Shown here in pieces: positions 918 to 20,962 of a stretch of 37,582 nucleotides of DNA. The notes beneath the pieces were generated by a model that worked only from the letters and a program-made list of their open reading frames with translations, was not told the origin of the DNA and did no database searches. Source of the stretch: a virus; IMG/VR virus record IMGVR_UViG_3300025147_000439, positions 1 to 37,582 of that record; one strand, given 5' to 3'. Position 1 is the stretch's first letter, and every line of letters starts with the position of its first letter. The position numbers and the translations under genes were made by a program.

Positions 918-946
918 TTGACGTGTCATAATTTATGACATACACT
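918..946 (+). promoter_or_regulatory. Sigma70-type promoter of the HTH operon
   Basis: TTGACG (918-923) and TACACT (941-946) are separated by exactly 17 bp, the optimal spacer. The promoter starts 12 bp after the integrase stop and fires toward the 76-aa gene at 999. Its spacer is a perfect palindrome, so occupancy should block RNA polymerase. Confidence 0.75.
924..940. promoter_or_regulatory. Palindromic operator inside promoter spacer
   Basis: TGTCATAA-T-TTATGACA is a perfect inverted repeat (8-bp arms, 1-bp centre). It fills the spacer between the -35 and -10 hexamers. The AT-rich composition stands out from the GC-rich surroundings. The likely ligand is the HTH protein encoded at 1285-1671, but an integrase-side or CI-like repressor cannot be excluded. 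Confidence 0.7.
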
Positions 947-998
947 TTAGGTACGAGGTCAGGCACTAGGCCAGACCGAGACCCCCAGGGGGATTCAG

Positions 999-1229
999 AT
1001 GGACAGCAAGTTCTCAGACCACGAGGTGAACGTGGCCCTCACCATCGGCGAGATGGCGGGAATGATCCACATCGATGGCGGCGTGCGGGCAGAGAAGAAG
1101 GCCCGCAACATGGCCCAAAGCCTCGCCGAGGACGTCGCCGCGATCGCGATGTTCTCCCTCCCGAAGATGGTCATCTTCCGCAACATGGCGGGCAAGATCG
1201 CCGCCGACCACGTCCGCAAGTACTCATAG
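999..1229 (+). CDS. Small orphan protein, candidate anti-defence protein
   Basis: 76 aa, no family recognised. It is the first gene after the 918-946 promoter; an AGGGGG ribosome site lies about 7 nt before the ATG. The predicted protein is soluble and mostly helical, with a hydrophobic Ala/Met-rich middle (NMAQSLAEDVAAIAMFSLPK) and a basic C-terminus (HVRKYS). No signal peptide, zinc motif or obvious HTH is seen. The next gene encodes an Aca2/YdiL-like HTH protein. By guilt by association this could be an anti-CRISPR or another anti-defence protein, but it could equally be an excisionase or a lysogeny regulator. The function is inference from context only. Confidence 0.8.
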   Translation: MDSKFSDHEVNVALTIGEMAGMIHIDGGVRAEKKARNMAQSLAEDVAAIAMFSLPKMVIFRNMAGKIAADHVRKYS

Positions 1230-1235
1230 GGAGAG

Positions 1236-1257
1236 GGCCCCGGGGAAACCCGGGGCC
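1236..1257 (+). promoter_or_regulatory. GC hairpin before the HTH gene ribosome site
   Basis: GGCCCCGGG-GAAA-CCCGGGGCC forms a 9-bp perfect stem closed by a GNRA-type GAAA loop. It lies between the 76-aa gene and the GAAGGAGAG ribosome site (1271-1279) of the HTH gene. No U-tract follows, so it is not a classical terminator. It could attenuate, stabilise the upstream message or serve as an RNA-binding site. Confidence 0.6.
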
Positions 1258-1284
1258 ACCCCCACCCCCAGAAGGAGAGAGACG

Positions 1285-1671
1285 ATGACCGAAACCACCG
1301 ACGAACCCACCATGACCGGCGCCGAGTTCCGATGCCTCCGCGAATACCTCGGCCTCACCAACGCCTGGCTCGCCGACTACCTCGGCGTCCACGAGCGCTC
1401 CGTCAACCGATGGGGCGACGACATCAGCCCCATCCCCCCCGGCATCGCCGACGACATGCAGAAGCTCGACGCGGACGCAGCGATGAGCGTCGACGCCGGT
1501 GTCGCACACCTGCGAACTACCAACAGTCGAACGTGGACGACGTGGCGCACTGACGATGCGCTCCACGCCGCCCACCCCGACGACGGGCACACCGCCCAAT
1601 GGCACCGCGCGATCGCCGCGCGGATCCGCGAGCGCGTGGCCGGCGTCGTGCTTGAGTTCGGTGACGAGTAG
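1285..1671 (+). CDS. Aca2/YdiL-like (DUF1870-type) helix-turn-helix regulator
   Basis: 128 aa. The ATG at 1285 has a strong GAAGGAGAG ribosome site. Residues 11-46 form an HTH (EFRCLREYLGLTNAWLADYLGV, recognition helix near HERSVNRW) followed by a PP-x-I turn and an acidic helix. The C-terminal half contains an HPDDGHTAQWHRAI segment. This two-part layout matches my memory of Aca2 and YdiL proteins (HTH, 'IPxx' turn, C-terminal N/HPD...W helix). Known Aca2 proteins repress the promoter of an acr-aca operon by binding an inverted repeat there; a fitting palindrome exists at 924-940. The inferred role is autorepressor of the 999-1671 operon. It could instead be a YdiL-type regulator unrelated to anti-CRISPRs. 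Confidence 0.8.
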   Translation: MTETTDEPTMTGAEFRCLREYLGLTNAWLADYLGVHERSVNRWGDDISPIPPGIADDMQKLDADAAMSVDAGVAHLRTTNSRTWTTWRTDDALHAAHPDDGHTAQWHRAIAARIRERVAGVVLEFGDE

Positions 1672-1772: not shown

Positions 1773-2429
1773 CTACTTGTCGGCGTTCACGGCGGGTTGT
1801 CGTGATGGCGGGCTTGCGGGGCGACCCCAGTTGCGGCGGGTCGCGGCGATGATTTGGGGGCCAGAAGCCACCGTTCCCGCGGCGCCGGAGATGAGGGCTG
1901 CAACTTGCTCCCCATGCCACAACAGTGCTGCGGCGAGCGCGAACAATGCCCACGGCATGAACGACACCGCGAAGGTTGACATCACGAAGGCGCTTGCTTC
2001 CGCCCGTAGAGGGATCATGAGGGCTTTCTGCTTGGTGCGTTGCTCCCGCTCAGCCATAGACACAATTCGATTGGCGAGTCCGGGTACGGCGTTTTCATAC
2101 TCGAGAAGGTCTTCAGGTGCAGGAAGTGGCCCGCTACGGTGCGTGAAGGCGACGGCCTTGATCTCGCCTGTGGTCAGGTGCTGGAGCTCCTCGAGGGGGT
2201 CTCCGCCTCGGCCATTTGATCCGACAGCAGCCGTCCCACTTCGTTCCAAACTTCGCCCACCGAGTCCATCTCCTGGATCTCCTGTGCGAGCTCTCGCATC
2301 CGCGTCGGATCCGGGCTGATTGCCATCTCCCACCCGCGCTCGATTCCCCTGAGAATTGGGCTCTTCTCTCGCAGATTCGTTAGGTCCATCAGACTGGTCA
2401 TGGCGATCGCCTTCCTGTGCCTCGTCCAT
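1773..2429 (-). CDS. DUF2335-family membrane protein (start uncertain)
   Basis: The C-terminal 140 residues match the DUF2335 pattern: RSGPLPAPEDLLEYE, then a PGLANRI / SMAEREQ helix, then two hydrophobic segments (SFMPWALFALAAALLW and ALISGAAGTVASG) and a short cytosolic tail. The family is of unknown function. The start is a problem. ATG 2429 has a good GGGGGAGGG ribosome site, but the 75-residue segment it adds is D/G/S/N-rich with about 50 percent GC at third positions, unlike its neighbours. The same DNA in another frame (2174-2401) has normal codon use. A TTG at 2249 is another possible start. The two frames may form one protein through a -1 shift near the C5 tract around 2195. The unit lies between two terminators, beyond the lysis genes. 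Confidence 0.7.
   Translation of the reverse strand: MDEAQEGDRHDQSDGPNESAREEPNSQGNRARVGDGNQPGSDADARARTGDPGDGLGGRSLERSGTAAVGSNGRGGDPLEELQHLTTGEIKAVAFTHRSGPLPAPEDLLEYENAVPGLANRIVSMAEREQRTKQKALMIPLRAEASAFVMSTFAVSFMPWALFALAAALLWHGEQVAALISGAAGTVASGPQIIAATRRNWGRPASPPSRQPAVNADK
2174..2401 (-). CDS. Small ORF overlapping the DUF2335 gene, possible N-terminal part
   Basis: 75 aa from ATG 2401, preceded by AGGAAGG at good spacing. Codon use (about 80 percent GC at position three by eye) is typical of this genome. The protein is helical and charged (RGIERGWEMA, RMRELAQEIQEMDSVGEVW). It ends inside the DUF2335 coding region in a different frame. It may be a separate, translationally coupled protein, or the true N-terminus of the DUF2335 protein separated by a programmed frameshift or a sequencing error. 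No family recognised. Confidence 0.5.
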   Translation of the reverse strand: MTSLMDLTNLREKSPILRGIERGWEMAISPDPTRMRELAQEIQEMDSVGEVWNEVGRLLSDQMAEAETPSRSSST

Positions 2430-11946: not shown

Positions 11947-12071
11947 GTGATCCTCCACAGAATCATTGGGTATTGGTCCGGCCAAGGCCGGGGTGAGTAT
12001 CCACAGTGAGGGGTGCCCCATGGGGCACCCCCGCGCCGCCGCTGTGGAGACCAGCGACGCGGGGATGGTCG

Positions 12072-20920: not shown

Positions 20921-20962
20921 GGGTGTAGCCCTCCTGGGGCGCTCGAGCGCCCACCTGGAGCG

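What the first reader, a model, noticed from the sequence alone, without database searches (positions are those of the whole stretch)
918..1671. Candidate anti-CRISPR-type operon: orphan small protein plus Aca2-like autorepressor
Seen: promoter with a perfect palindrome, a 76-aa orphan gene, then an HTH gene with the layout of Aca2/YdiL proteins, all in 750 bp beside the integrase. Known: acr-aca operons have this order, and Aca2 binds an inverted repeat in the promoter. Inference: the 76-aa protein may be a new anti-CRISPR or other anti-defence factor. This is the strongest candidate for an undescribed system in the window. Resemblance to Aca2 is by eye, and the family also includes regulators without Acr partners.
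Basis: partly seen in the sequence, partly recalled or inferred. Interest (0 to 1): 0.85.

Follow-up and report, generated by a model that had tools for sequence, protein, structure and literature searches.

The report
Self-regulated phage operon with RNA switch
[quoted passage not shown] the same pair of signals sits in front of many different unknown genes in phages of actinobacteria, so it may serve as a bait for finding new phage counter-defence genes.

Summary
In detail: TTGACG-17-TACACT at 918-946, its spacer an exact 8+1+8 palindrome; a 76-aa orphan (999-1229); a 128-aa HTH protein (1285-1671). The HTH protein has the complete two-domain Aca2/YdiL fold (Z 13.5-15; nothing else above 9.8). 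Two unforeseen features emerged. (1) The leader forms tandem hairpins; the first (957-977, GGUC-A-GGC-ANNAG-GCC-A-GACC) also stands in front of unrelated small genes in Aca2-like operons across actinobacterial phages. Its close variant occurs in 20 viral loci, all 20 with a start codon just downstream, and an Aca2-like gene lies nearby in all 17 with enough sequence; Mycobacterium phage Bipper has 10 copies, each 17-23 nt before an annotated start. Stem pairs change in a compensatory way. (2) The promoter palindrome changes in step with the recognition helix while the RNA hairpin stays constant. Best reading: an Aca2-type autorepressor acting on DNA (evolutionary support strong) and on mRNA (inferred), like acrIF8-aca2 of phage ZF40. 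That the 76-aa protein is an anti-CRISPR is unsupported: no family, no fold match; Cas1 absent from the one host genome and present in only 2 of 44 genomes of its genus. New variant of a known kind.

The parts
918..946 (+). sigma-70-like promoter, -35 TTGACG (918-923), 17-nt spacer, -10 TACACT (941-946)
   Evidence: near-identical in L003 and L011
924..940 (.). DNA operator: perfect palindrome TGTCATAA-T-TTATGACA that fills the promoter spacer
   Evidence: different palindrome at the same place in L003/L011 and in over 20 related operons
957..977 (+). leader hairpin 1: GGUC-A-GGC-ACUAG-GCC-A-GACC (pentaloop ANNAG, A.A mismatch), proposed RNA operator
   Evidence: folds; same hairpin before unrelated genes; compensatory changes; CM R1 35.1 bits
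978..996 (+). leader hairpin 2, GAG-A-CCCC-CAG-GGGG-A-UUC, holding the Shine-Dalgarno sequence (about 987-992)
   Evidence: a second hairpin that holds or overlaps the Shine-Dalgarno is also predicted in L003, L020, L021, L028, L018, L022, Bipper, Typha and ZF40 leaders
999..1229 (+). 76-aa orphan protein (cargo), predicted three-helix bundle, pI 8.1
   Evidence: 80-83% identical in L003/L011; dN/dS 0.06-0.30
1236..1257 (+). 9-bp hairpin with GAAA loop between the two genes; the hairpin sequence is identical in all three elements; terminator/attenuator or RNA-processing element (inferred)
1285..1671 (+). 128-aa HTH protein of the Aca2/YdiL fold, proposed autorepressor
1393..1413 (+). codons of recognition-helix residues E37-W43 (R38 aligns with Aca2 R30)
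   Evidence: role of R30 from PMC8434428
1718..1760 (.). long GC-rich inverted repeat at the end of the operon, between convergent transcripts (probable terminator)
   Evidence: read from sequence; similar element at the same place in L003 and L011
64..906 (+). tyrosine integrase directly upstream (context)
   Evidence: start inferred from alignment with L003/L011

Best explanation
A self-contained phage module, lying beside the integrase, in which an Aca2/YdiL-type HTH dimer limits its own synthesis and that of the gene before it at two levels. Transcription: it binds the palindrome that fills the -35/-10 spacer and excludes RNA polymerase. Translation: it binds the leader RNA, recognising the ANNAG hairpin with the A.A mismatch and holding the adjacent Shine-Dalgarno hairpin shut. 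The strong promoter gives a burst of cargo on infection; as HTH protein accumulates, both new transcripts and existing mRNAs are silenced. The 76-aa cargo is most likely an early-infection accessory protein, perhaps counter-defence. Shown computationally: the parts, their conservation, helix-operator covariation, hairpin covariation and hairpin-HTH co-occurrence. Inferred: binding, repression, RNA binding by this HTH, and the role of the cargo.
For: Fold: AlphaFold pLDDT 89; Aca2 Z 14.0-15.0 over 113-118 residues, SO3848 14.3, YdiL 13.5, next Aca10 9.8 over the HTH only; the helix/strand order equals that published for Aca2 (PMC8434428). Profile: best PDB matches are Aca2, then YdiL; Pfam Aca2_YdiL hits all six members aligned, and a family member passes the Pfam cut-off (27.3 over 23.8). 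DNA operator: palindrome in the promoter spacer; in 29 relatives' leaders the best inverted repeat ends 13-18 nt before the hairpin in 27, and 21 are significant singly. Its sequence follows the recognition helix: RTVRHW with CTTCC (11 of 11), xDTxRR with CCCCAC (3 of 3), PRTxRA with CACCC/ACCTCC (5 of 5), GEATVNRW with GATAG (2 of 2), window HERSVNRW with TGTCAT; no permutation of 20000 does as well. RNA operator: 12 distinct hairpins, 100% of cells paired, 3 pairs with double changes, slid controls 0; 20 viral loci, 20 of 20 before a start codon, 17 of 17 testable ones with an Aca2-like gene on the same strand, against none in 22 loci found by weak or unspecific hairpin matches; in 198 genomes the only three covariance-model hits above 30 bits are all Aca2-like operons. 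ZF40 acrIF8-aca2, the type system, has the same plan: palindrome between -35 and -10, two tandem leader hairpins with the SD in the second, location between lysis genes and integrase. Aca2 binds RNA (cryo-EM complex, PMC11239489; Birkholz 2024 Nature, title seen, content from memory).
Against: No experiment. That the HTH, rather than the ribosome or a host factor, reads the hairpin rests on co-occurrence and on analogy. The ZF40 RNA hairpin differs in sequence and is not hit by the models. In Bipper and Typha most hairpin-led genes have no HTH gene in the same operon, so action in trans must be assumed. In L003/L011 the palindrome (5-bp arms) is not significant alone. Loci are related, so counts overstate independent events; controls were shorter or from other taxa.
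Confidence: 0.75

Rival explanations
1. True acr-aca operon: the 76-aa protein inhibits a CRISPR-Cas system. Compatible with the regulatory model; it concerns the cargo only.
For: Operon order, Aca2-type regulator, place beside integrase and lysis genes as in ZF40; variable orphan genes precede the regulator, as acrs do.
Against: No sequence or fold match to any Acr; no known acr among the cargo of relatives; Cas1 absent from the lysogen genome and in only 2 of 44 genomes of its genus; only 3% of Aca2-like proteins have an upstream acr (PMC9410906).
Confidence: 0.12
2. Type II toxin-antitoxin pair: 76-aa toxin followed by an HTH antitoxin that autoregulates.
For: Toxin-first pairs with autoregulating HTH antitoxins are common, and Aca2 resembles MqsA (PMC9410906; HigA2 and MqsA among HTH-only matches). 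In Bipper and Typha the hairpin also precedes genes annotated as toxins.
Against: 55-nt gap with a strong hairpin that would lower antitoxin relative to toxin; cargo of relatives is extremely diverse and mostly acidic with no toxin family; no PADLOC or NCBIfam TA match above cut-off.
Confidence: 0.12
3. The hairpins are only a translation-initiation or mRNA-stability device read by host factors; the HTH acts on DNA alone.
For: Hairpin 2 holds the SD; in Bipper and Typha hairpins precede genes far from the HTH gene.
Against: Hairpin and Aca2-like gene co-occur 17 of 17; in 198 genomes no strong hairpin lies without one; a pure initiation device would not need a fixed ANNAG loop and A.A mismatch.
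Confidence: 0.2
4. Integration/excision control: the 76-aa protein is a recombination directionality factor and the HTH its regulator.
For: Adjacent to the integrase in all three elements.
Against: Predicted three-helix bundle without HTH or winged helix; no excisionase match; an inserted gene separates integrase and operon in L003 and L011.
Confidence: 0.05

Closest known systems
acrIF8-aca2 operon of Pectobacterium phage ZF40 (JQ177065/NC_019522)
   Same: small gene then Aca2-fold HTH; palindrome in the -35/-10 spacer; leader with two tandem hairpins, second holding the SD; next to lysis genes and integrase
   Different: cargo unrelated; DNA palindrome and RNA hairpin sequences differ; HTH only about 20% identical in structure alignment; hosts are actinobacteria; one RNA hairpin type is shared by many cargo genes, and in Bipper/Typha by many genes of one phage
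YdiL (1S4K) and SO3848 (2OX6)
   Same: full-length fold (Z 13.5 and 14.3)
   Different: chromosomal, no cargo-regulator operon established (PMC8434428)
PHROG 955 HTH DNA binding protein (Bipper gp48, Typha gp48, Gilgamesh gp87 as relatives)
   Same: full-length homologues, 35-39% identity, shared C-terminal PASWHRA.AARV motif
   Different: no 76-aa gene; in Bipper/Typha the hairpin marks about ten scattered genes
Start-associated sequences (SAS/ESAS) of cluster K mycobacteriophages
   Same: repeated elements just upstream of start codons of many genes of one phage (PMC3203893)
   Different: sequence GGGATAGGAGCCC plus 17-bp inverted repeats; the authors saw little support for RNA hairpins; no link to an Aca2-like protein tested here

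Membership tests
Aca2/YdiL family (PF08965) | profile match over the curated cut-off | tested here: inconclusive
   window protein 21.0 bits against 23.8; family member L099 27.3, over the cut-off
Aca2/YdiL family (PF08965) | two-domain fold: HTH a1-a3, long a4, b1-a5-a6-b2 dimerisation domain | tested here: met
   topology from PMC8434428
Aca2 (functional group) | recognition-helix arginine equivalent to R30 | tested here: met
   R38 in the window protein; alanine in L003/L011, which have another operator
Aca2 (functional group) | inverted repeat within the core promoter of its operon | tested here: met
Aca2 (functional group) | binds leader RNA stem-loops and blocks translation | not testable with these tools
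   stem-loops present and covarying; binding untested
Aca (anti-CRISPR-associated) | encoded with a proven anti-CRISPR gene | tested here: not met
   no known acr in this operon or among the cargo genes of relatives examined
Anti-CRISPR protein (76-aa) | inhibits CRISPR-Cas interference | not testable with these tools
   no homologue or fold match; Cas1 rare in the host genus
Type II toxin-antitoxin | toxic first protein neutralised by the second | not testable with these tools
   no toxin family match

The most novel reading that the evidence does not exclude
Actinobacterial phages and other mobile elements share an Aca2-type dual DNA/RNA repressor whose DNA specificity drifts while its RNA specificity (ANNAG hairpin) stays fixed. 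In some mycobacteriophages it governs in trans an RNA regulon of about ten accessory genes. The hairpin marks a large undescribed pool of counter-defence genes, of which the 76-aa family is one.
Probability: 0.3. Interest if true: 0.85.

Novelty: new variant of a known kind. Interest (0 to 1): 0.62.

Why it matters
Anti-defence genes of actinobacterial phages are poorly known because there is little to use as bait. A short, specific RNA motif plus a promoter palindrome plus an Aca2-fold gene is a searchable signature that already collects over 20 operons with unrelated, unannotated cargo. It also extends dual DNA/RNA control by HTH proteins beyond the proteobacterial Aca2 and suggests that one HTH protein may control many mRNAs in one phage, directly testable in the laboratory phage Bipper.

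Tried and rejected
Foldseek of the 76-aa model against PDB and viral models: no match below E 0.6. Search for the 76-aa protein in phages, plasmids and 396 genomes of the order: only the Demequina prophage. Rfam: no family matches the window leader or 11 related loci. The stem2=3 hairpin pattern outside Bipper/Typha hits an unrelated repeat (GGGCAGGCACAAGGCCAGCCC) without Aca2-like genes, so it is not specific on its own. Weak covariance-model hits (24-29 bits) in genomes have no Aca2-like gene and were taken as chance. SAS/ESAS of cluster K were considered and not equated. MAFFT on whole leaders misaligned the two stem lengths and was not used for counting. A second, weak match to the HTH in the L003 contig (G002:27168) was read but not resolved.

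Full report
WHAT IS THERE. The window is a 37,582-base virus record. Its genes run leftwards (terminase, portal, tape-measure region, lysis, primase, RusA, methyltransferase); of the genes examined, only the integrase at 1-906 and the two genes of the finding run rightwards. Between 918 and about 1760 lies a self-contained unit: promoter, leader, 76-aa gene, hairpin, 128-aa HTH gene, inverted repeat at the end. The promoter spacer is an exact 17-nt palindrome (6 of 5000 shuffles) found nowhere else in the window.

RELATIVES. One record (L002) carries the identical operon. L003, another phage contig, and L011, a prophage in a Demequina genome (phage genes up to roughly 33 kb of the contig, then tRNAs and host-like genes), carry the same operon beside a related integrase. 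The 76-aa protein is 80-83% identical and under purifying selection (dN/dS 0.06-0.30), the HTH protein 51-59% with dN/dS 0.29-0.89 (Nei-Gojobori, short genes, rough). The 52-nt leader is 85-94% identical, more than third codon positions of the 76-aa gene (67-83%). L003 and L011 share a promoter palindrome (GATAG-GTTTT-CTATC) that differs from the window's, and they share a recognition helix (GEATVNRW) that differs from the window's (HERSVNRW).

THE HTH PROTEIN. Pfam Aca2_YdiL 21.0 bits, E 4e-4, slightly under the cut-off of 23.8; all six members of an alignment with mycobacteriophage and Streptomyces phage proteins match. A profile finds Aca2 first in the PDB. The model (pLDDT 89) aligns over its whole length with Aca2 (Z 14.0-15.0), SO3848 (14.3) and YdiL (13.5); everything else is HTH only, Z 9.8 or less. 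The order of helices and strands is that described for Aca2. R30 of Aca2, needed for repression (PMC8434428), corresponds to R38 here.

THE LEADER. All three leaders fold into two tandem hairpins, the second holding the Shine-Dalgarno sequence. Looking at genes in front of other HTH-family members (18 of 392 genomes of the order) showed that the cargo is different each time while the first hairpin recurs. A descriptor scan found it in several copies in Bipper and Typha. With covariance model R1, Bipper has ten copies at E up to 0.1, all 17-23 nt before annotated starts. The stem shows compensatory changes only: 12 distinct sequences, every cell paired, three pairs changed on both sides. A scan of viral contigs for the longer-stem variant gave 20 loci: 20 of 20 have a start codon downstream, and an Aca2-like gene on the same strand is present in all 17 that are not cut off by the contig end; 22 loci from weak or unspecific matches have none. 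In one (L099) cargo and HTH are fused in one 329-aa protein, which passes the Pfam cut-off.

DNA OPERATORS. In 27 of 29 hairpin-bearing leaders the best inverted repeat ends 13-18 nt before the hairpin, in the promoter spacer (21 significant singly). Half-site and recognition helix go together without exception in the classes found (classes were drawn by eye and loci are related, so the permutation result is not a probability). The hairpin is the same across these classes. Hence DNA recognition drifts and the RNA element does not.

COMPARISON WITH THE TYPE SYSTEM. ZF40 acrIF8-aca2 was fetched and read: spacer palindrome GTTCGCGATTGCGAAC between TTGCTT and TATAAT, two predicted leader hairpins with the SD in the second, position between lysis genes and integrase. 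The plan is the same, the sequences are not. Aca2 bound to a 42-nt RNA has been imaged (PMC11239489). That it represses translation and that this is widespread in the family is my recollection of Birkholz et al. 2024 (title confirmed; text not held).

MECHANISM. Most likely: strong promoter at entry, cargo and HTH made, HTH dimer closes promoter and ribosome-binding site. The GAAA hairpin between the genes, identical in sequence in three elements, probably lowers HTH relative to cargo (inferred). Function of the cargo is open. Acr is disfavoured by rarity of Cas1 in the host genus (2 of 44) and absence in the lysogen (the genome is a MAG and may be incomplete), and by the 3% base rate. Small size, early-type strong promoter, tight control and location favour an accessory or counter-defence protein in general.

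VERDICT. Observation confirmed; interpretation partly supported. The regulatory module is a new variant of the Aca2 system; the cargo is a new, uncharacterised family.

Noticed in passing
L059 (Bipper NC_031253, 33-37 kb and 66-72 kb), L060 (Typha NC_054393): About ten copies per phage of the ANNAG hairpin just before start codons, including genes annotated as ribonuclease or RelE-like toxins; a candidate RNA regulon of an Aca2-like protein.
   Followed up: partly
L099:4229-5215: One 329-aa ORF joins an unknown N-terminal cargo domain to an Aca2-like HTH domain, recalling Acr-Aca fusions such as AcrIIA1.
   Followed up: partly
L020, L023, L027, L102, L107, L111: A recurring small acidic cargo family with motif D(I/V)DAI(A/V)D..L plus a C-terminal FW/YW, before Aca2-like genes; no Pfam or NCBIfam match for those scanned.
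   Followed up: partly
L098, L100, L104, L105, L109: Another recurring cargo: about 168 aa with an N-terminal excisionase-like HTH (weak HTH_17) and motif IGGNRWQKNG..RVYINNW.
   Followed up: no
window 1773-2405 (-): DUF2335 membrane protein next to the holin-like genes, absent at that place in L003; PHROG 3996 moron-type membrane protein.
   Followed up: no
window 12010-12031 and 20937-20952: Two further perfect palindromes of 8 bp or more per arm (GGGGTGCCCCATGGGGCACCCC; GGGCGCTCGAGCGCCC).
   Followed up: no
L002:95-170: Sequence upstream of the integrase in the twin contig looks like the 3' part of a tRNA gene and could be attP; ARAGORN finds no whole tRNA.
   Followed up: no
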